Below, piece by piece: positions 25,875 to 64,000 of a stretch of DNA of 64,000 bases; position 1 is the first letter of the stretch, and each line of letters starts with the position of its first letter. This DNA comes from Serratia ficaria (GTDB lineage: Bacteria > Pseudomonadota > Gammaproteobacteria > Enterobacterales > Enterobacteriaceae), in contig NZ_LT906479.1 in assembly GCF_900187015.1 (NCBI RefSeq), positions 4,650,001 through 4,714,000 on the forward strand, read 5' to 3'. A model generated the notes under the pieces. That model ran no database searches, had not been told where the DNA came from, and was given only the letters and a program-made list of their open reading frames with translations. The translations under genes were made by a program, and so were the position numbers.

Positions 25875-43730
<17,856 letters not shown>

Positions 43731-54587: not shown

Positions 54588-54998
54588 ATGACATCCGCAC
54601 TGGCTTCAGATCTCTCGGTATGCCTGATGATCGCGCTGGCGTCGGCCAGCATTTCCATGACGCTGACCCAAACCGAACTCTTCGCGGCGCTGCGGGCCTG
54701 GGCGGCGCGCAAAAACGCCCTGCTGGGCCATCTGTTCAAATGCTTTTACTGCATGAGCCACTGGGTGGTGATAGCCGGGATGCTGGTTTACCGCCCCGCG
54801 TTGCTGCACAGCGGCATCGGCCCGGTCGACTGGGTGATGACCGCCTTTATCGTGCTCACCGTCACCACCTTCATTAACGGCCTGCTGTTTAAAGCGTTTC
54901 AGGCGGCCGTTCGCACTCATGTGATGAAGCACGAGGCGCAGCAGATGTTGAACCCGCATGAGTCGCGACGAGGCGCACATGAACCAGAACACCAATGA
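54588..54998 (+). CDS. DUF1360 membrane protein
   Basis: A 136-residue protein with three hydrophobic helices (LMIALASASISMTL, HWVVIAGMLVYRPALL, TAFIVLTVTTFINGLLF) and the family motif FKCFYCMSHW (CxxC). Function is unknown for the family. It is the first of two overlapping genes; the methyltransferase ATG lies inside its last codons. Confidence 0.88.
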   Translation: MTSALASDLSVCLMIALASASISMTLTQTELFAALRAWAARKNALLGHLFKCFYCMSHWVVIAGMLVYRPALLHSGIGPVDWVMTAFIVLTVTTFINGLLFKAFQAAVRTHVMKHEAQQMLNPHESRRGAHEPEHQ

Positions 54999-55674
54999 CA
55001 TTTTCAACGGCGAGTTTTCCCGCCAGTATGACGCCGGCAACGCGCGCTTCAGTGCGATTAGCGACAATCTTCACTTTTTGATTGCGCTGCTGCTGAAGGA
55101 TTTGCCCGCCGATGCGCACATCCTGTGCATCGGCGTGGGAACCGGCACCGAGATCGTCCATTTGGCCGGGCTGTACCCGGGCTGGCGTTTCACCGGCGTC
55201 GATCCCTCCGCCGATATGCTGCAGGTGTGCGCCAGTAAGCTGCGACGGGCGGGGATTGGCGATCGCTGCGCGTTGGCGGCGGGCTATCTGCAGGATCTGC
55301 CGGGCACGGCCGATTACGACGCCGCGCTGTGCCTGCTGGTAACCCACTTTATTCTTGATGGCGAACGCGGCGGCCTGTATCGCCAGACGGCGGCGCGGTT
55401 AAAACCCGCAGGCCGCATGGTGGTCGCCGAAATCGCCGGCGATATGGCGGCGGCGGATTTCGACCAGCACCTGGCCAGCTGGGCCGCCATGCAGGCTCTC
55501 GCCGGCCAAACTCCGCGCACGGCGGACGAGCTCAGGACCCAGCTGCAGCAGCGCTTGCTGCTGTTGCCGCCGGCGCACACCGAGCGGCTGATCGCCGAGG
55601 CCGGTTTCTCTGCGCCGCAGCGCTTCTTCCAGTCGTTGCTGATCCATGCCTGGGCGGCTCGCAAACCGGCATAA
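54979..55674 (+). CDS. class I SAM-dependent methyltransferase
   Basis: The 231 residues show methyltransferase motif I ILCIGVGTGTEIVHLAGLYPG and motif II FTGVDPSADML, with the post-motif DYDAALCLLVTHFI. The substrate is unknown. I prefer the ATG at 54979, which has GAGG seven bases upstream, over one at 54958; both lie inside the DUF1360 gene, so the two are coupled. A terminator follows, the last clearly chromosomal element before the A/T-rich region. Confidence 0.9.
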   Translation: MNQNTNDIFNGEFSRQYDAGNARFSAISDNLHFLIALLLKDLPADAHILCIGVGTGTEIVHLAGLYPGWRFTGVDPSADMLQVCASKLRRAGIGDRCALAAGYLQDLPGTADYDAALCLLVTHFILDGERGGLYRQTAARLKPAGRMVVAEIAGDMAAADFDQHLASWAAMQALAGQTPRTADELRTQLQQRLLLLPPAHTERLIAEAGFSAPQRFFQSLLIHAWAARKPA

Positions 55675-55697: not shown

Positions 55698-56304
55698 TTC
55701 GCGATATTTTCCAGGCGAACCTTAGAACGGCAGTTCGCATAAAATAGAAAACAAATCATTCAATCTATTGAAAATATTGTTTTTTACCATAAGTATAAAC
55801 AAAACCGTTAAGCTAAGACAAATATTGTCAACTTTCTGGGCAGGTACTGTGGGAATATTAGTCGCCAAGCGTAAAGATAAAATCTTGACACTTTTAGCGA
55901 CAGCACCTGACCAACTCAGGCGGCTTCCAACGCCCAAAATCAAAAAGGAGGGTATTGGAAGGCAGGTTGTTTCCACCAAACATTGGACAACATTTAGCAA
56001 GATCTAGGCGAAATAAAATCCATGTTCCGCTCTTGCCATCAACTCTATGTCAAACCTTATTATTTGTGAGCAACATGGCAGCGAATTAGCTGCCATACAA
56101 TTTAGTAGTTTTCAAATGAATACTTTTGCATACTTTGAAATATTACCGGCACAGCTCCCGTCTCATACTAAGGTTTGGAATAGAGTTACCCCAAATTACG
56201 CGCAATTACCTGCCTTATGCGTAATTACGCATGTCGTGCGTAACTCGGCTATCCGCAGCTCACTCTCAAAGCCACATTCAAAATTAATCTGCTGAAACCA
56301 ATTA
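55698..56304. other. A/T-rich end region of the recombinase island
   Basis: These 607 bases lack a convincing gene. Base composition changes from GC-rich to A/T-rich at about 55740. No tRNA is seen. Open frames at 55768-56007 and 56047-56295 have no ribosome site and no recognisable family. The region contains the palindrome cluster at 56183-56246. One end of the element is likely here. Confidence 0.5.
56183..56246. repeat. palindrome and inverted-repeat cluster, candidate recombination end
   Basis: GAGTTAC at 56183-56189 and GTAACTC at 56240-56246 form outer inverted arms. Between them is a perfect 16-base palindrome ATGCGTAATTACGCAT (56217-56232), and extra copies of TTACGC/GCGTAA at 56196, 56229 and 56238. 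Such packed short repeats fit a recombinase or regulator binding site. It lies just downstream of the last island gene. Confidence 0.55.
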
Positions 56305-58179
56305 TTATTTTCTACTCAGCATCCTCAAGATATCGAGGGCTTTTGAGCAGGTGTAGTATAAATAGGGCTCCAGGATACAAAGCCTTTCAAGCATCACTTC
56401 TATTCTCTCAATAGTGTCCTCGCCGATTGGAAGATATGCCAACTCCGTACACCATTGCCCTATATATTCCGCCCAGCCCTCTTTATCCTCAAAGGCCGCT
56501 CCTGCCACGAGACCTATTGCCAGATAGTTTTCGGGCTCAGAATTCACATCAATATAGTCCCTATACAGCCGACTTAAGATCGTCACCGATGCAGCAAGTT
56601 TTTTACTTCTGGTCATACAGGCAACCTGAGCCAGCCCGTTTAACACCTGGTAGACAGAATCCTTGTCATTAACTGCTGCTAATTTGTGCTGTGCGCTTTC
56701 GAGAAGTAAAACTACACGCTCCAAATATTCATCATCAATTTTCCAGAAGGGTGTTGAATTCATCAAAACCCTGAAGGACTCGAATGAAGCCTCGCTGTTA
56801 ATATGCTTAGCAAGCAAATTCGAGATTTCATCCGGTACAACTGCTGGCGTAGAGTTACCCTCCAATGGCCCAGGTAAGAATGAGTGCATATTTAATCGCA
56901 AACCAGGTATAAGCTCCTTTTTTAGGTACTCAACAACGTCACACTGATTGGCCTCTTGGCATACGTTATTTACCCGTCCATACAACTCATTAATGAACTG
57001 TCCTGCGGTTAAGTACATTGGCAGCCATCTTGGCTCTTCTATCAGATCGATAACACTTTGACAGAAAAAGTAAAGCCCCCTTTGTTGAGTAGCCCACTGC
57101 TCTACTTTGTCAAAAGCAACGCCCTCGTCCAGCCCCACCTTGACAATTAACGCTGACTGGGAAAATGCAGCAAGGCGCCTGTAGAATGGTGGTTTCCCCT
57201 TGAATATCTGCAATCGCGCCAGTTCTCCATCAACAAAAACTGCCATTGAGCAAAATATCCGAAGATTATCTAACGTTTTTTCAGAAGATATGCTTTCAAA
57301 CAGCTTTTTAATAATTTCGGCTGATGAATCCTTGAATTTCAGTATGCCTACTTCAAGGCATGATATTAAAAGTATCGGATGACAGGTTTCGATTGCTTGG
57401 TTTGCTATTGCATGATACTGAGCCTCATCAACAAGACCATTGGAAACAATTACTGATATAGACTTATGGAAGCAGATCAAGAGATCATTAACGCCCACTT
57501 TATTTTCTATTCGGTTGTCAAAATACTGTTTTAGCTCGACCTTACAGTACTCATAAATATTTTTACTCCCGCAATATTTCCCCACAAGCCTTTCGTAATA
57601 GCGAATATTATCGGGAACTAGGGTAGAAATTTTATTTAGCGACCCTTGAAACTCCTGCCTCAATAAGGCCTCAATGTGACTTGGTGACCGCTCCAAATCA
57701 AGTAATAAATCTGATACGTCATCATCACTGATCGTTGGCACCGAAAGCACAGCCCCCCAACGTTCCAACTCATCTTTCGAAAGCGACCTATCTTTCGCTT
57801 CTGTTTCAAATAGGCTAAACCTCTTGTCCGCATCATTACAAAGCGGCCAAAAACTGTGATTAAGTAATCGCTCGCCTCCCCTGCTTAAAGAAAATGCAGG
57901 ACGTTCACCTGGATGATGGCGTAGAGACCAAGAGTTGCCATTAACATCCTCCAAATAAAATTCTTCCTCGGTATTTTTAAAAGCACTGCGGATAGCCTTA
58001 AAGAGAGCGCTTCTGGAAAAGGCTATATCTTTATAACCAAAACTAACGGTGGCATCAGTCGCAAGACCGATCTCTTCCGACAACGTAGAATCAGATAATA
58101 ATTCCGTCCTGACCAAGCTGGGGAATAAATTGATAATATGGGAGGCCATATAAGCTCGCATCGAATCATAGTTAGCCAT
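56305..58179 (-). CDS. large helical protein, partner of the PIN-domain protein
   Basis: I do not recognise this 624-residue protein. It is almost entirely alpha-helical by composition, without signal peptide or membrane helices. The residues after about 200 look like an extended helical solenoid (HPILLISCLEVGILKF, VFVDGELARLQIF). No nuclease or NTPase motif is evident. Its ATG lies inside the end of the upstream 1360-residue gene (ATGGCTAA, eight-base overlap) with GAGGAAGAG just before it, so the two are tightly coupled and probably act together. Composition is A/T-rich relative to the chromosome. It is the last gene of the island operon. Confidence 0.8.
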   Translation of the reverse strand: MANYDSMRAYMASHIINLFPSLVRTELLSDSTLSEEIGLATDATVSFGYKDIAFSRSALFKAIRSAFKNTEEEFYLEDVNGNSWSLRHHPGERPAFSLSRGGERLLNHSFWPLCNDADKRFSLFETEAKDRSLSKDELERWGAVLSVPTISDDDVSDLLLDLERSPSHIEALLRQEFQGSLNKISTLVPDNIRYYERLVGKYCGSKNIYEYCKVELKQYFDNRIENKVGVNDLLICFHKSISVIVSNGLVDEAQYHAIANQAIETCHPILLISCLEVGILKFKDSSAEIIKKLFESISSEKTLDNLRIFCSMAVFVDGELARLQIFKGKPPFYRRLAAFSQSALIVKVGLDEGVAFDKVEQWATQQRGLYFFCQSVIDLIEEPRWLPMYLTAGQFINELYGRVNNVCQEANQCDVVEYLKKELIPGLRLNMHSFLPGPLEGNSTPAVVPDEISNLLAKHINSEASFESFRVLMNSTPFWKIDDEYLERVVLLLESAQHKLAAVNDKDSVYQVLNGLAQVACMTRSKKLAASVTILSRLYRDYIDVNSEPENYLAIGLVAGAAFEDKEGWAEYIGQWCTELAYLPIGEDTIERIEVMLERLCILEPYLYYTCSKALDILRMLSRK

Positions 58180-61100
58180 TCAGCTCTTCCTCCAACATTG
58201 ATTGCTTAGAAATGCTTTTAACCTGTTGCTTCATAGAGTCAATCACTTTTTTAAAACTCCAGGGGTCGATATCCCTCAGCGGCCCCAGAACAAACTCATC
58301 TAACCATGCTTTGTAGCCTTCCTTTTGCTCATTAGATAAAGACTCCGGTGCGATCAACATGGAATTCACCTTTAAAACCTCACCCATATAGGCCATCCCT
58401 CCATCGCCCCTTATTTGGTGGGCCTGAGCCCACTCCCGATAGCCCATCAGCTCATAAAGCCAGCAGGATCTCGCACGGCTCAGTTCAAGTGGGATATCAG
58501 CCGACCACTGAGCCATTATGGTTTCTGCAATCATTTTCATTGTTTCGTGTAGCCACTGCGCATCTCGCGGGAGCTGAACCAGACCACTAATCCTGATCAA
58601 AAGCAGATTTTCTCTTATCAGTCTTAGCTGTTTAGTTGGTTTAAACTCGCCATTTGAAATGACCGAGTGATTTAGATGATATTCAAGCTCTTCAGCAGAA
58701 ATGCCTACAAACTCAAACCCAAATTCCCGAAGTGATGTTCTGGCATCAAGCTTCTGTTCTTGAGAAATAATCCCTTTATGGTGTAGAGTCTCAATAAAAT
58801 CTAATGATGTATAAATAGGTGCGGTTCTTCCATCAAATGTAATATTTTGATACTTGTTCATAAATCGATCATCGATCAAGGCTGTATCGCATATTTTAAG
58901 TGCCTCAAAAAGTTCCTCTGTTGGCCTAGCATAATTATTCTTAGACGAAGCTACTTGCTCTCGATTTAGCGGCATTTCAGCAAGGAGTACTTTCCCAGAC
59001 ATGAGCCCATTAGATAATATTTTCCTTATATTTTCTATTTTCGAATCTGCCTGTTCGATGATTGAATCGTAGTTTACCAACGATCTATACCTATCACGCT
59101 CCCCCTTAAATACATACAAGTCGAATCCGGCATCACTGAGCTTGTCGAGCATTTCAACTGTCATCAAATAGGTAATTGACAGTGAATCAAGATACAATCT
59201 TGCACCACTTGCTACTTCAATATCTGTAGGCCACTCTTTCTCGTGTTGGCGCAGGTAGTTTAAGGCTTTAACACACTGAGCTTCCGTTATTACAGCCAGA
59301 CTTTCGAGTTTTTTAATTAATTGCGTACATGAAATCAGACTGTGGTGAAATGAAGAAAGGTCTGCTTCCACCTCCCTGAAGGAGCCACCTACCTTATACA
59401 CAGGGTTGGAGCACACCACCAGTGCCTGCAACTCATTTTTAGGACTAGCGTGTGCCTCCTCAAGCATATAAGCAAGTTCATCACCTACATCCAGGACCAA
59501 CCCCGGATTGTTGATCGTTTTAGGATGAAAAACGGAAATTCTGCCGTTAGATACCATTCGCTCAAAATATTTTGCCTTTTCGATCTGGCTCGGTTGGTGA
59601 AAAGCAACTTTTTGCTTTTCTTCAAACAACCAGCGCATGAACGAGTGAGGGATAACAATGCTCTCGAAGCAATCTAATAAATAATGTAGCACCCCTATAT
59701 TTTCCATAACCATGGCACTGGAGGCATCGATGGCAATCGTCTTACCAACAATAATCTGCACAGGTCTTGTCCCAGAAAATATTGGGACCAAATTTTTCCG
59801 ACGTATATCTTTCGCGCTTTTGTTTTCCTGAGGCTGGACTAGGTAAAAGTCAGACATAGTCCTGTTTAATATCTCCGCCACTGTAAAAATGGGCGAATCA
59901 CCATCATAATAGGCCTTATAAACTCTTTCATTTCTCTCCCTAGCCTCGGACATCATCTCTTTTAAGTCGTCAAATGAAGCCCTATGCAATGGGCCATTAT
60001 CATTGGAAAGAGCCATCGCCTTATTGAGCCATGCGGATGCTTCTTGATTGTTCTCCCAGCCCATCATGGTCGCCGTAAGGTATGATGCCGCTAACACCTT
60101 AGGGTCTTCAGTGTTTTTTCCAGTACAGTACTCTACTATTTGCCTTGCCCGACCGGGTAAAACCGCCTTCGCCAACTGGGCAGCATGCAAAAGATCATCA
60201 ACCTTCAATTCCTCCCGGCTATTCCAACTATCCTCTACAAAAACGCTAAGAGATTCCCAGTTACCACCGAATATGGCCAAATTGATTTCAAGTGCTTTAA
60301 GATCAGTCAGTTGTGATTTAGATTGCCTCAACAACGCAATCTGTTGTTGAGCGCCGCTTAGGTCGCCTTTTCTAAATAAAGACCAAGCCCAGTGAGCCTG
60401 CAACCCCTCACTTATCTTGACGAGATCCATCCTATCTGACAGAAATTGATGAAGCTCAGAAAATTTCCCAAGCGAAGAGGCGGCATTACAGACTCTGATA
60501 GCATCAGATTCCTGGCCAGTGCGATCAAAGAGCTCCTTACAATATGAGTAGTATCTATCCCCAACGTTTTCTCTTTCCAGTAAATTAACCAAATGAGAAA
60601 GATCATTGGTAGCTTTACTTTGTTGATATTGGCTTATAGCTAATGCAACTGGATCTTCCCCCTTGGCCGACTCAATAATATTTTGCAGATTCCTTACTTC
60701 AGCATCAGGCGCACCAGATCCCTCTATCTTTTTTAGGAGCAGTTCTGCATCATCAACCAATCCTGAACGCGCCAATGCCTCTATTTCAAACATGCTAATG
60801 GCAATGGGATTAACCGCTCTCTCCATTTGAACTCTGTGGCGAACGATATACTCCACTACTGCCGAGACTGGTTTTTTTGTTTGTGCCAATACAAACCTGG
60901 CTAAACCAAGAATTGGATCATTATAATAGCTTAGTGCCGTTTGCCTATTTACTTCCTTTTCAATGGACTCAAAATCAATATCAATTCCAAACGCGAATGC
61001 CAGTGGCAAATACTCAAGAGTTTTTTGAGTGTAACTAACGAAGTAGCTCTGAAGTTGAGCCTTTGCCTGCTCATGTGTTTCACTGTTTCTAAGCTCTAAC

Positions 61101-62254
61101 CACAGCCCATAGTTATCCGCCATATTCGCGACATCTTCAGCACCAAGACGCCTCGCCAGTTCAGAACAAACTTTAAACAGATCAACAGCGCGATTTCTAA
61201 GCACTATAGAGTCAGAATCATCTGCCAGCGGAAATCGCTCTGCCGCTAATGGAACAGAATTCATTACGATTTTGCGAAGTTCAGTGGCCTTAATTGCATT
61301 TACCAAAAATGTGAATGCAGAAATCTGAGCCAGCGCTGGAGACATAGACAAGGACTCATCGCCTATCGCCTGCACAAAACCTAATGCCTTTTCCCATCGA
61401 TGTTCTGACAGCAATGCAGAAACTAAAACGACTTTTCCATCGTTATCTAAGTCCTGAACACTTAAACCTGAACCGTCAAGCCAGTCAAAAGCAGCTTCGT
61501 TTCCCTCCACTGTTTTTGTAATCATGAAGAAGGCGGCATAATTGGATGGGCTACTTGTCTTAAGCAAACCAGACGCCGCATCTACATTGTTCGATCCAAT
61601 AGCATCAAAAAAGGCCTGTGCTATTACCGCCTCCTCCGTTTGGCACAGTTTTTTAGAACTTGATAACCAGCTTTTCGCCTGCTCAACTCTTTCCCCCATG
61701 CACACGTACCTTGCCAGTAGCGCTAGTGCCCTAGCTTTTGCTTGAGGGGTACCACCGGACAGCTCTCCATCAATAATGCTTTCTGCTAAAGCAGTCGCTT
61801 TTTCTTCCTTAGGAAAAGATCCAAAAAAACGTAATAAGGTAATTTCGTGAGAAAGTTTTTCTATTTTCTCGTCTTGAAGATGCTGAGCATTAAATCCTGC
61901 ACTCTTCATACGTTTTGTTATTTCATGGGCTACTTGTGATGGGAGTTCGGTTAATTGATTGGGTAGCTCATTATTTTTCTTTAGCCACACATCAAGAAAA
62001 TAAACAAGAACACTTAAAATTATAAGGGAGGCTCCCAGAGGGTAATTTGGCTGCGCAAGAGGAAACTGATAACCGGGGAAAAAATTCTGGTGGACTAACA
62101 CCCAGTTGGCAATATCAATCCATATAGGGACACTAAGCGACGCTAAACCTACAGTCATTGACGGCCAAATAATATACTTCGCTAATGAGGGCTTCCAATG
62201 TGTCTTCAGAAAATCTAACACATCACGGATTGCTTCATTTAGATCAAATTTCAT
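58172..62254 (-). CDS. membrane-anchored helical-repeat protein with PIN-like nuclease domain
   Basis: This 1360-residue protein has two N-terminal membrane helices (about residues 25-52 and 72-92). A long TPR-like helical region follows (about 130-790; for example VEQAKSWLSSSKKL and AWSLFRKGDLSGAQQQIALL). At about 838-1140 is a PIN-like nuclease domain: first Asp at about 843 in IAIDASSAMVM, an acidic ELAYMLEEA segment and the late acidic LIDDRFMNKY near 1129. This resembles the TPR-PIN proteins predicted for bacterial conflict systems, an inference from memory. PIN domains usually cut RNA. The start ATG overlaps the upstream stop by one base (TAATG) with GGGAGAG before it. Confidence 0.82.
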   Translation of the reverse strand: MKFDLNEAIRDVLDFLKTHWKPSLAKYIIWPSMTVGLASLSVPIWIDIANWVLVHQNFFPGYQFPLAQPNYPLGASLIILSVLVYFLDVWLKKNNELPNQLTELPSQVAHEITKRMKSAGFNAQHLQDEKIEKLSHEITLLRFFGSFPKEEKATALAESIIDGELSGGTPQAKARALALLARYVCMGERVEQAKSWLSSSKKLCQTEEAVIAQAFFDAIGSNNVDAASGLLKTSSPSNYAAFFMITKTVEGNEAAFDWLDGSGLSVQDLDNDGKVVLVSALLSEHRWEKALGFVQAIGDESLSMSPALAQISAFTFLVNAIKATELRKIVMNSVPLAAERFPLADDSDSIVLRNRAVDLFKVCSELARRLGAEDVANMADNYGLWLELRNSETHEQAKAQLQSYFVSYTQKTLEYLPLAFAFGIDIDFESIEKEVNRQTALSYYNDPILGLARFVLAQTKKPVSAVVEYIVRHRVQMERAVNPIAISMFEIEALARSGLVDDAELLLKKIEGSGAPDAEVRNLQNIIESAKGEDPVALAISQYQQSKATNDLSHLVNLLERENVGDRYYSYCKELFDRTGQESDAIRVCNAASSLGKFSELHQFLSDRMDLVKISEGLQAHWAWSLFRKGDLSGAQQQIALLRQSKSQLTDLKALEINLAIFGGNWESLSVFVEDSWNSREELKVDDLLHAAQLAKAVLPGRARQIVEYCTGKNTEDPKVLAASYLTATMMGWENNQEASAWLNKAMALSNDNGPLHRASFDDLKEMMSEARERNERVYKAYYDGDSPIFTVAEILNRTMSDFYLVQPQENKSAKDIRRKNLVPIFSGTRPVQIIVGKTIAIDASSAMVMENIGVLHYLLDCFESIVIPHSFMRWLFEEKQKVAFHQPSQIEKAKYFERMVSNGRISVFHPKTINNPGLVLDVGDELAYMLEEAHASPKNELQALVVCSNPVYKVGGSFREVEADLSSFHHSLISCTQLIKKLESLAVITEAQCVKALNYLRQHEKEWPTDIEVASGARLYLDSLSITYLMTVEMLDKLSDAGFDLYVFKGERDRYRSLVNYDSIIEQADSKIENIRKILSNGLMSGKVLLAEMPLNREQVASSKNNYARPTEELFEALKICDTALIDDRFMNKYQNITFDGRTAPIYTSLDFIETLHHKGIISQEQKLDARTSLREFGFEFVGISAEELEYHLNHSVISNGEFKPTKQLRLIRENLLLIRISGLVQLPRDAQWLHETMKMIAETIMAQWSADIPLELSRARSCWLYELMGYREWAQAHQIRGDGGMAYMGEVLKVNSMLIAPESLSNEQKEGYKAWLDEFVLGPLRDIDPWSFKKVIDSMKQQVKSISKQSMLEEELNG

Positions 62255-62730
62255 TAAACTCTCCCTAAAGGTGGAATTTCTTTGTCAAACGGCCGGAGGA
62301 TTTGCGCAGTTTCAGTATTAGAAGGCAGCTCAGCTCCTTCTAGCGGGGCTTTATCAACATTAGTCATTTGTATGCCTTTCTGCCGTACGTGGAAGGCGAT
62401 TTGCTGCCAGCGGCGCAGCCATTGAGCTTCTTTTCGCTTGTAGGCCTCCAACTCAGCCTTGAGGCGATCTACCTCCACCTGAAGCACCTCAGCCTCTTTA
62501 GCGGCTTGCTCTTTGGTTTTCACCAAACCGCCCGACAGTGCTCGTTTAGCGTTATCATAAGCGGCTTTGATCTCGGATTTAGCCTGGAGCGACTGGCGAC
62601 TAAAGCCAAAGCGCTCTTCTAGCACCACCCAGGTAAGTTTTGACCCAAGCTCGCCCAGTGCCCAGCGATCCAAATCGGCAACGATTGTATTGATATCACT
62701 GTCGGACATTCGTCTGAAGCGCTTAACCAT
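62254..62730 (-). CDS. small HTH/coiled-coil protein of the recombinase module (GmtX-like)
   Basis: The 158-residue protein has a probable helix-turn-helix (TWVVLEERFGFSRQSLQAKSEIKAAYD) followed by a coiled coil (EVLQVEVDRLKAELEAYKRKEAQWLRRWQ). Small proteins of this shape accompany tyrosine recombinases in Tn554-type transposons and in gamma-mobile-trio elements (GmtX). The name is an inference from position, length and layout, not a search. It overlaps the recombinase stop by eight bases (ATGGTTAA) and touches the PIN gene start (TAATG). Confidence 0.7.
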   Translation of the reverse strand: MVKRFRRMSDSDINTIVADLDRWALGELGSKLTWVVLEERFGFSRQSLQAKSEIKAAYDNAKRALSGGLVKTKEQAAKEAEVLQVEVDRLKAELEAYKRKEAQWLRRWQQIAFHVRQKGIQMTNVDKAPLEGAELPSNTETAQILRPFDKEIPPLGRV

Positions 62731-64000
62731 GCTCTACCTCGTTTAGATATTCTTCGGGATCAAAGTGCTCAACCCCGTTGTCGGCCAGTTGGGCAGCCAG
62801 TGTTTTAAGTTTTTTATCGTTGTGTGCCAGCCAGTCCGCACTCTTTTTCGGCTTGGCACTATCCAACTGCTTTTCAGCATTTTTTCGCGCCAGCGCAGTA
62901 AGGGCATACTGGCGCTTCTGCTCGTCCAGACGACCCTTATCATCCTTAGCCCACACGTAGTCTTTGCAGTCCGCCGAACATTGCAAATGCCGCTCGCAGG
63001 GTGTTTGAGAAAAGTTGTGAATGCAGATACCCGTACCAACATCATGCACCGCCTGAATTCGCGCTTTCAGAATGGCATCCTGGACTGCTACCGGAGCTAC
63101 TTTGATTTGCTCAGCTAACTGGCCTCCAACCAAGCCTTTTTTGATGTCTTCACGGAGCATCAGTGCTCGTTTTTCGCGGGATGTATGCTGATAGGCTTTG
63201 GTATCCCTTGGGTTGGTTCGGCCAAACCATTCGGTTTGCAGCAAATCACTTAACCCGCCCTCATCAAGCAGGGTATTAAGCGTGTGACGGAAATGGTGAC
63301 TGGTAAAATCCACCTCAATACTGCTAGATGCGTATTCGGCGGCAAGCGCAGGGAAATAGCGAAGAAAGGTAGTAAACATGGACTGGCTACAGCTTGTAGC
63401 CAGCCAATGAGCGTAGCTCCCACTAGAAAGTCCCAGCGGACGAATGAATAAAAGATCTTTTAGATAATATTCTTTACCAAACTGATCGATATGAAGTGGT
63501 CGTAGTGATTTTTCAGAAAAATCTCGAAAGCAATAGGCCCTGACCCCCTCTTTGTTTGTGTAACAAATTGGGTTATTTGGCATTTTTCCTTTCTTGGTGA
63601 CACGACCATAGTCCTGCCAAACAAGCCCTTCCTTCCTGATCCACCCAGTAGAACCAATCACAGTGTGACTTACCCCTATACTTAGCAAGTCATCGATGTA
63701 TAGCTTCTTGTGCTCTGGAATTTTATACAGAAAACGAAGGTCAGGTCCTTTAGTACGATGCATTTCTTCTGCTGTTATTCTCGCCACAGCTGTTGCCTCA
63801 AGTGCTTCACCAAGCACATCTCGAACGATTGGCACAACCTCTGATGGCAAATAGAGATTTCTTATAGGCGTAAATAGATCACCACGGCTTGCCTTCCTAG
63901 GGAAGTATTGTATGAAGACATTTTGCTCATCATCCAATTTAATTTCTTGAAGTGGAAGCAATGAAATTTCACTAAAGCGGCGACCTGTGCAAGCAAGCAG
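62723..64000 (-). CDS. tyrosine recombinase/integrase, 5' end outside window (GmtZ-like)
   Basis: The frame is open from the window edge, so the true start lies beyond 64000. The first visible codons give TGRRFSE, the box I arginine motif of tyrosine recombinases. Box II is SHHFRHTLN (HxxR), and the likely nucleophile is the tyrosine of AYQHTS. A C-terminal cysteine/histidine cluster (ICIHNFSQTPCERHLQCSADCKDYVW) may bind zinc, as seen in some multi-protein recombinase systems. 426 codons are present. Together with the coupled 158-residue gene this suggests a two- or three-protein integrase module, such as the gamma-mobile-trio or Tn554 type, whose first member would be outside the window. Confidence 0.85.
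   Translation of the reverse strand: MLACTGRRFSEISLLPLQEIKLDDEQNVFIQYFPRKASRGDLFTPIRNLYLPSEVVPIVRDVLGEALEATAVARITAEEMHRTKGPDLRFLYKIPEHKKLYIDDLLSIGVSHTVIGSTGWIRKEGLVWQDYGRVTKKGKMPNNPICYTNKEGVRAYCFRDFSEKSLRPLHIDQFGKEYYLKDLLFIRPLGLSSGSYAHWLATSCSQSMFTTFLRYFPALAAEYASSSIEVDFTSHHFRHTLNTLLDEGGLSDLLQTEWFGRTNPRDTKAYQHTSREKRALMLREDIKKGLVGGQLAEQIKVAPVAVQDAILKARIQAVHDVGTGICIHNFSQTPCERHLQCSADCKDYVWAKDDKGRLDEQKRQYALTALARKNAEKQLDSAKPKKSADWLAHNDKKLKTLAAQLADNGVEHFDPEEYLNEVEHG

What the first reader, a model, noticed from the sequence alone, without database searches (positions are those of the whole stretch)
56305..64000. Recombinase island carrying a two-gene candidate anti-phage system
Four overlapping genes on one strand link an active-looking tyrosine recombinase and its small partner to a membrane-anchored TPR/PIN protein and a large helical partner. 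Defence genes carried by gamma-mobile-trio elements have been reported (the GAPS series). I recall a two-protein member with a PIN nuclease but cannot check it. The cargo is cotranscribed with the recombinase, which is itself notable.
Basis: partly seen in the sequence, partly recalled or inferred. Interest (0 to 1): 0.88.

Follow-up and report, generated by a model that had tools for sequence, protein, structure and literature searches.

The report
Mobile defence-gene island inserted at ssb
The genes belong to a 12-kb mobile island that sits, in two letter-for-letter identical copies, at the end of the single-strand-binding-protein gene of both the chromosome and a resident conjugative element, and it carries a predicted two-gene anti-virus system whose function is not yet shown.

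Summary
The four genes are part of an 11,983-bp element (window 55729 to 67711) with three tyrosine recombinases, a small GinD-like protein and two cargo genes, overlapping on one strand. It is a GInt (ginABCD island, Bardaji 2017), not a gamma-mobile-trio element: GinA scores 31.8 bits against the GmtY cut-off of 340. A second, 100% identical copy lies on a PFGI-1-type conjugative element of the same genome. Both copies sit at the 3' end of an ssb gene; empty sites exist in relatives. Another cargo shows the same picture in E. coli isolate 68: 19,368 identical bp at the chromosomal ssb and at an IncF-plasmid ssb. Of 12 plasmid hits opened (of 67), 11 lie at the plasmid's ssb. The cargo is a two-gene form of the predicted TPR/GreAB-C/PIN conflict system (Kaur 2021); fused relatives exist. 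Anti-phage function is inferred, not shown. Most interesting: SSB-tip codons are one target shared by chromosomes and by vehicles that move between cells.

The parts
56305..58179 (-). Cargo gene 2: 624-aa protein with permuted GreAB-C domain (residues 48-99) and helical solenoid
   Evidence: ORF; PF24388 62.6 bits, cut-off 27; AlphaFold2 mean pLDDT 89.4
58172..62254 (-). Cargo gene 1: 1360-aa protein; hydrophobic N-terminal segments, HTH_upst_double_PIN (761-830), PIN-TPR-GreABC (1021-1137)
   Evidence: ORF; PF24407 74.4 bits, PF20698 61.9 bits; hydropathy; D843, E879, D1023, D1128, D1129, D1152 kept in 30 or 31 of 31 rows
62254..62730 (-). ginD, 158-aa small partner (DUF6262/TnpC-like, weak)
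   Evidence: PF19776 E 0.013, under cut-off; identity to seven GinD-position proteins 94, 84, 72, 50, 38, 24 and 24%
62723..64000 (-). ginC, tyrosine recombinase; continues outside the window to equivalent position 64750 (675 aa in all)
   Evidence: PF00589 27.6 bits on the full protein, cut-off 27.1
55729..56304 (-). 576-bp 3' tail of the element, GC 0.394; ends in the right-end motif TTTATGNGAACTNCC
   Evidence: identity break between the two copies; length and GC; motif at 0-1 mismatch in 14 of 24 gin or cargo loci scanned, some of which stop short of the right end or are repeat records of one element
55725..55730 (-). attR core CCGTTC, also found at attL in the ssb stop region outside the window
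54958..55674 (+). host ORF flanking the far end (methyltransferase-like by reading only); not part of the element

Best explanation
An 11,983-bp GInt (genomic island with three integrases). Its ginABCD operon inserts the element at the last codons of ssb (GAY GAY AT. CCN TTY, encoding the SSB tip DDIPF). The element supplies the final Phe codon, a stop and a conserved terminator-like hairpin, so the chromosomal SSB protein stays intact. Because ICEs, IncF and IncC plasmids, P1-like phage-plasmids and P4-like satellites carry their own ssb, one target specificity gives both a safe home and rides between cells. Shown by sequence: precise insertion at two ssb genes, identical copies, empty sites, the same pattern in other genomes. 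Inferred: that the copies arose by transposition inside this lineage, and that the vehicles actually transfer it. Cargo (inferred): a split TPR/GreAB-C/PIN device. The GreAB-C-like protein senses or docks on RNA polymerase engaged on phage DNA; the PIN domains of its partner then cut RNA; the N-terminal membrane segment sits in the slot where relatives carry other domains and may be an anchor or a membrane-damaging effector. Outcome: abortive infection.
For: Identical copies and sites. GInt anatomy and ssb preference in print: PMC5385486, text parts 1-3 of 6 read. Empty chromosomal site in G275; ICE ssb without the element in G279 (DNA) and G292 (protein end). ICE genes: ParA-type ATPase, DnaB, ssb, PilL2, TraD, TraC, TraU. 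Isolate 68: 19,368 identical bp in chromosome and plasmid ssb. Plasmids: ssb directly upstream in 11 of 12 opened ginA-bearing records, of 67 records hit. E. coli: chromosomal ssb/element junction in 56 of 5426 genomes. Satellite-like ssb in strain ES2; P1-like ssb in one IMG/VR contig. Hairpin in 15 of 15 left ends aligned. Cargo: Pfam; PIN gene directly upstream of the GreAB-C gene in 10 of 10 loci; 4 of 120 PIN homologues fused to the GreAB-C protein, and one more fused frame in G042; N-terminal domains vary. Of 12 other gin elements whose cargo I saw at least in part, 7 carry restriction or named defence genes.
Against: No excision, transposition or transfer was observed; identical copies could also come from separate arrivals, and near-identical cargo proteins circulate (99% in Providencia manganoxydans; P0125, P0126). 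One opened plasmid (K. pneumoniae ps01) has a truncated ginA at another gene, which also ends DDIPF; G326 has one copy at a gene ending DEMPF: the target is a DNA motif, not ssb as such. Of the 7 plasmids with a full-length GinA of at least 40% identity, MOB-suite types 3 as conjugative, 1 as mobilizable and 3 as non-mobilizable. The ICE edges were not mapped and the one TraI_2 relaxase found lies at 466592, beyond the 440 kb that I viewed (that family also rings in 3 of 14 control genomes). Insertion changes the ICE SSB: it removes a 15-residue extension. PIN and GreAB-C were not recovered by fold search. TPRs are below cut-off. Of the 12 other gin elements 2 carry polysaccharide genes and 3 unclear genes. 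I saw no phage test of this cargo.
Confidence: 0.8

Rival explanations
1. The two copies are independent arrivals: the chromosome and the ICE each acquired the same circulating element, with no movement inside this cell line.
For: GInts are exchanged between species; near-identical cargo proteins exist elsewhere (P0001 99%; P0122 to P0126 99-100%; their contexts were not seen and some may be this strain).
Against: Zero differences in 11,983 bp and, with another cargo, in 19,368 bp. The four other loci with the same gin-cargo layout are only 79-80% identical in GinC and 70-84% in the cargo proteins. G326, a draft, shows four copies identical over 11,020 bp.
Confidence: 0.18
2. The cargo is a toxin-antitoxin-like or addiction module that mainly secures the element, with phage defence as a side effect or absent.
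For: GInts often carry addiction modules according to Bardaji et al.; the PIN fold is common in toxins (recalled).
Against: Both proteins are large and one has an RNA-polymerase-type domain; elsewhere the pair lies near GmrSD, KAP or helicase genes or near a TniB gene; 4 of 120 relatives are single fused proteins.
Confidence: 0.2
3. It is a gamma-mobile-trio island with a GAPS system.
For: GinA has a partial GmtY match (31.8 bits); homologues of the cargo occur in Vibrio parahaemolyticus, the model host of that work (recalled).
Against: GmtY cut-off of 340 bits missed and no other Gmt model listed. Whether the cargo equals a GAPS system could not be tested.
Confidence: 0.1

Closest known systems
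GInt, ginABCD genomic islands (Bardaji et al. 2017, PMC5385486; text parts 1-3 of 6 and passages seen)
   Same: Three tyrosine recombinases plus GinD in one operon, cargo starting at the ginD stop, short 3' end, imperfect repeats, preference for the end of ssb, interchangeable cargo
   Different: Two identical copies, one on an ICE; ssb of vehicles as target; conserved terminator-like hairpin at the left end; GinC keeps an Arg at box I, which the paper says GinC lacks. I saw no mention of vehicle ssb genes or of such a hairpin in the parts read
TPR / GreA/B-C / PIN conflict system (Kaur et al. 2021, PMC8195603; abstract and passages seen)
   Same: GreAB-C and PIN domains; variable N-terminal domain in the wider family
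   Different: There a single, mostly standalone protein; here two overlapping genes, a permuted GreAB-C in the second, a double-PIN region and an N-terminal membrane segment
Strand-biased circularizing integrative elements (PMC10214605; passages seen) and Tn554 (named there)
   Same: Several tyrosine recombinases plus a small protein, target-specific, 6-bp footprint
   Different: That paper separates SE and GInt proteins into distinct clusters; I made no comparison of my own
Gamma-mobile-trio islands (recalled; only NCBIfam models tested)
   Same: Recombinase-led island with defence cargo
   Different: GmtY score far under cut-off, no other Gmt model listed
Tn7 (recalled)
   Same: A chromosomal safe site plus conjugative vehicles as targets
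   Different: Tn7 uses two target selectors; here one target sequence serves for both

Membership tests
GInt | Operon of three tyrosine recombinases plus small GinD at one end | tested here: met
   GinB and GinD are under Pfam cut-offs taken singly
GInt | Cargo begins at the ginD stop, then a short AT-rich 3' end | tested here: met
   1-nt overlap ginD/cargo, 576-bp tail of GC 0.394; listed E. coli matches end at the ginD stop
GInt | Site-specific insertion with imperfect flanking repeats | tested here: met
   CCNTTC at both ends of both copies, sites without the element in relatives; shorter than the 10-17 nt given in the paper
GInt | Excision as a circle, dependent on all four gin genes | not testable with these tools
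   needs PCR and mutants
Gamma-mobile-trio | GmtY protein at the NCBIfam equivalog cut-off (GmtZ and GmtX: no model listed, presence of models not checked) | tested here: not met
   NF040693 31.8 bits against 340
TPR/GreA/B-C/PIN system | GreAB-C domain | tested here: met
   PF24388 (permuted form) 62.6 bits, cut-off 27
TPR/GreA/B-C/PIN system | PIN domain of the associated type | tested here: met
   PF20698 61.9 bits, cut-off 27.8
TPR/GreA/B-C/PIN system | TPR repeats | tested here: inconclusive
   TPR_19 E 0.047, under cut-off; region not modelled
TPR/GreA/B-C/PIN system | One polypeptide, order effector-TPR-GreAB-C-PIN | tested here: not met
   two genes, PIN before GreAB-C; fused PIN-GreAB-C proteins in 4 of 120 homologues
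GAPS systems | Homology to published GAPS proteins | not testable with these tools
   no sequences or original paper found
PFGI-1-type ICE (vehicle of copy B) | Coupling protein, TraC ATPase, TraU, PilL2 | tested here: met
   TIGR03754, TIGR03744, TIGR03756/PF06834, TIGR03748 over cut-off
PFGI-1-type ICE (vehicle of copy B) | Relaxase and defined ends | tested here: inconclusive
   one TraI_2 match in the genome at 466592, outside the viewed stretch; ends not mapped

The most novel reading that the evidence does not exclude
The codons for the conserved acidic tip of SSB act as a near-universal attachment site. GInts of this kind copy themselves between the chromosomal ssb and the ssb genes of whatever vehicle is in the cell (ICE, IncF or IncC plasmid, P1-like phage-plasmid, P4-like satellite), so that a non-conjugative element with one target specificity gains both a neutral home and general transport, and defence cargo is spread by riding the very elements that need SSB for single-strand transfer.
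Probability: 0.7. Interest if true: 0.72.

Novelty: new variant of a known kind. Interest (0 to 1): 0.62.

Why it matters
In print, transposition of a complete GInt had not been demonstrated and GInts are called putatively non-mobilizable (PMC10214605, passages); transfer attempts failed (PMC5385486). Here natural genomes hold identical full-length copies at chromosome and vehicle, which names a likely vehicle and makes the question directly testable in laboratory E. coli with an F plasmid. It also offers a reason why unrelated GInts converge on ssb. The cargo is a clean two-gene unit in which a predicted RNA-polymerase-type sensor and a PIN nuclease can be separated and tested.

Tried and rejected

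Direction of movement between the two copies could not be decided. Both ends of copy A carry G and both ends of copy B carry T at the variable core base, while the nearest sites without the element carry T (G275) and G (G279): opposite in each case, so the core base tells nothing. G326's contigs stop at the element's edge and could not be used either.

Host: not named by any search; resemblance of its SSB to Serratia is recalled only.
Full report
What is there. The four genes of the finding exist as described and form the distal part of a larger unit. The window is part of a 5.21-Mb single-contig genome of 100% estimated completeness. Read past 64000, the recombinase is 675 aa and is preceded by two more tyrosine recombinases (527 and 393 aa) and then by ssb and a uvrA-like ORF (uvrA by reading). 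All six element genes point the same way and overlap by 4, 26, 8, 1 and 8 nt. GC of the element is 0.436 against 0.55-0.72 in the 2-kb blocks of the window before 56001.

Boundaries from a second copy. The same DNA occurs a second time in the genome. The identical block is 11,983 bp: window 55729-67711 and genome 383551-395533, 0.88 Mb apart across the contig's ends if it is circular. Copy A ends in the chromosomal ssb. Copy B ends in a different ssb (85% identical to the first over part of its DNA) within a PFGI-1-type conjugative element: ParA-type ATPase, DnaB, a topB-like gene (by reading), ssb, PilL2, TIGR03759, TraD (1097 bits, cut-off 648), TraC (1415 bits, cut-off 521), TraU, TIGR03755. 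A TraI_2 relaxase lies at 466592, beyond what I viewed; the ends of the ICE were not mapped. Two proteins of the public collection come from contigs of exactly 11,983 bp (P0121, P0124), which is what collapsed identical copies would give in a short-read assembly; I did not see those contigs.

Precise insertion. The relative G275 has GATATTCCTTTC|TAAGGTTCGCCTGG, the sequence on the two sides of copy A save for the core base. For copy B, G279 has GACATACCGTTC|CTTGGGTTTGGTTATGG where copy B's flanks read GACATACCTTTC and CTTGGGTTTGGTTACGG: the same but for the core base and one more. G292's ICE SSB ends with the same 15 extra residues. A gin, PIN or GreAB-C match beside the chromosomal ssb occurs in 0 of 29 genus relatives, within about 1.5 kb. 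In copy A the SSB protein end is unchanged and only the stop codon differs from G275. In copy B the insertion removes a 15-residue extension (LGFGYGIAKSAIYAL) and leaves the canonical DDDIPF end. The element brings Phe-stop and, about 85 nt on, a hairpin followed by T-rich DNA (GCCCT...AGGGC) that is present in 15 of 15 left ends aligned, with a C-G/T-A alternation at its inner pair and an A-T in place of G-C in the window's copy.

What kind of element. This is the anatomy of a GInt (PMC5385486, text parts 1-3 of 6 and passages): three recombinases plus GinD, cargo at the ginD stop, preference for the end of ssb. NCBIfam gives 31.8 bits for GmtY against a cut-off of 340, and 256.7 bits for GinB against NF041502 (site-specific integrase, cut-off 350). 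GinA keeps R208, R326, Y366; GinB R215, R355, H378, Y387; GinC R258, H485, R488, W508, Y520 across 9, 8 and 14 aligned proteins. That these are active-site positions is motif recall. Published accounts say that GinC lacks the first arginine or the catalytic tyrosine; in this family both seem present.

The same gin module with other cargo. GInts of this clade are rare: GinA at E 1e-30 in 3 of 394 genomes of the order, this one included. In 5426 complete E. coli genomes a related gin operon is found at 59 places in 57 genomes, 57 on chromosomes and 2 on plasmids, one of the latter a 9% fragment; the chromosomal ssb/element junction is intact in 56 genomes. With the window's element as query, 57 records match, and the 20 listed matches end at the ginD stop (query 505-1746): cargo starts there and is swapped. 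I saw at least part of the cargo of 12 other gin elements (the four found through this cargo left out). Seven carry restriction or named defence genes: type I restriction with a PsyrT-like RecQ and DprA; type I restriction with a Ppl-like protein; type I restriction with DUF262 proteins; type I restriction behind an IS1-broken gin operon, seen in two plasmids and counted once; HerA-SIR2; an Mrr-like helicase in G326; Avs4 in a distant gin element (record annotation). Two carry polysaccharide genes. Three are unclear: a 1922-aa ATPase with a weak nuclease match, a stretch with a cytosine methyltransferase, one cut hypothetical gene.

Vehicles. GinA has 67 matching records among 72,556 plasmids. 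I opened 12 of them. In 11 the gin operon starts at the 3' end of the plasmid's own ssb (in one a group II intron lies between). The 7 records with a full-length GinA of 40% identity or more are all among these 11: three with IncF-type replicons, two IncC, one IncY that looks P1-like by its neighbours, one untyped; MOB-suite conjugative, 1 mobilizable, 3 non-mobilizable. The twelfth record (K. pneumoniae ps01, truncated ginA) sits at another gene that also ends DDIPF. 55 records were not opened; most are about 25% identical. Two further records opened through GinC have lost ginA to IS1. An IMG/VR contig shows gin genes at an ssb with P1-like neighbours, and E. coli ES2 has a copy at an ssb, annotated as having an internal stop, of what reads as a P4-like satellite next to tRNA-Pro (its second copy was not opened). 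No match in the phage collection.

Identical copies elsewhere. E. coli isolate 68 has a 19,368-bp identical block at its chromosomal ssb and at the ssb of its IncF plasmid P3. Draft genome G326 has four copies identical over 11,020 bp: one at ssb, one at a gene ending DEMPF, two at contig edges, so sites of these two are unknown and the assembler may have evened out differences. Thus three genomes with three different cargos hold more than one identical copy. I take this as recent movement inside the lineage; copy-out, or excision from a sister chromosome and re-insertion, cannot be told apart here, and separate arrivals are not excluded.

The cargo pair. Gene 1 has PF24407 and PF20698, gene 2 PF24388, all well over cut-off; the names tie them to the TPR/GreAB-C/PIN conflict system predicted by Kaur et al. 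2021 (PMC8195603, abstract and passages). That paper describes one polypeptide and proposes that GreA/B-C engages RNA polymerase on viral DNA and that PIN cuts the transcript. Here the device is split. PIN and GreAB-C genes are neighbours in 10 of 10 loci found with gene 2, in Gamma- and Betaproteobacteria, a Desulfopila and a contig binned as Roizmanbacteria. Of these 10, four have ssb and ginABCD in front; five show no ginABCD related to ours in the 2.9-5.9 kb upstream (one of them keeps two short GinD-like pieces); one contig is too short to tell. Neighbours of those five include GmrSD, KAP, helicase and TniB genes. Among the 120 listed PIN homologues (of 124 found) 4 are single proteins with PIN first and GreAB-C last, one 60% identical to gene 2. 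N-termini vary: a hydrophobic stretch in 93 of 120, in others lipase-like PF05057, PF14280, HNH-named proteins. Conserved acidic residues lie at D843 and E879 and at D1023, E1074 (28 of 31), D1128, D1129, D1152 in two regions whose predicted strand/helix order resembles PIN domains; fold searches did not confirm it. The GreAB-C protein is patchy: 2 of 274 genomes of the class sample, one of them this genome.

Judgement. GInt membership about 0.95. Shared-target shuttling between chromosome and vehicles about 0.7-0.8. Anti-phage role of the cargo about 0.6, its RNA-polymerase/RNA-cutting mechanism about 0.4. New in what I could search: the vehicle ssb genes as landing sites and the natural double insertions; the kind of element and the domain set are known.

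Noticed in passing
window genome 413085-415841 (locus L070:13085-15841): The ICE region that holds copy B carries a HerA-type ATPase (DUF87) beside a gene that reads as SIR2-like, perhaps a Sir2-HerA defence pair; a plasmid GInt (L056) carries a HerA-SIR2 pair too.
   Followed up: partly
L072, L073, L079: ICE-borne SSB proteins without the element have extra residues after the DDDIPF tip (LGFGYGIAKSAIYAL or LVRRFAL); in copy B insertion removes them.
   Followed up: partly
G326, loci L081-L084: Four identical copies of another GInt of this family in one draft genome, one at a gene ending FKDEMPF.
   Followed up: partly
L057 (K. pneumoniae plasmid ps01): Truncated ginA at the 3' end of a 326-aa hypothetical gene ending WGDDIPF, so the target motif is not limited to ssb.
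   Followed up: partly
window 26001-42000: GC rises to 0.67-0.72 against 0.55-0.65 in the blocks before and after.
   Followed up: no
L086 (G284), L080 (G298): ssb of other genus members is followed by different sequences with a TGTAAAG motif like that of distant gin elements, perhaps other islands at the same site.
   Followed up: no
left ends of gin elements, alignment A4: TGTAAA-like motifs recur three times, about 75 nt apart, one inside the hairpin loop; possible recombinase-binding arms.
   Followed up: no
E. coli gin operons, hits H67-H74, H117, H120, H123: Several are interrupted by IS3-type or IS100 elements, so some chromosomal copies may be inactive.
   Followed up: no
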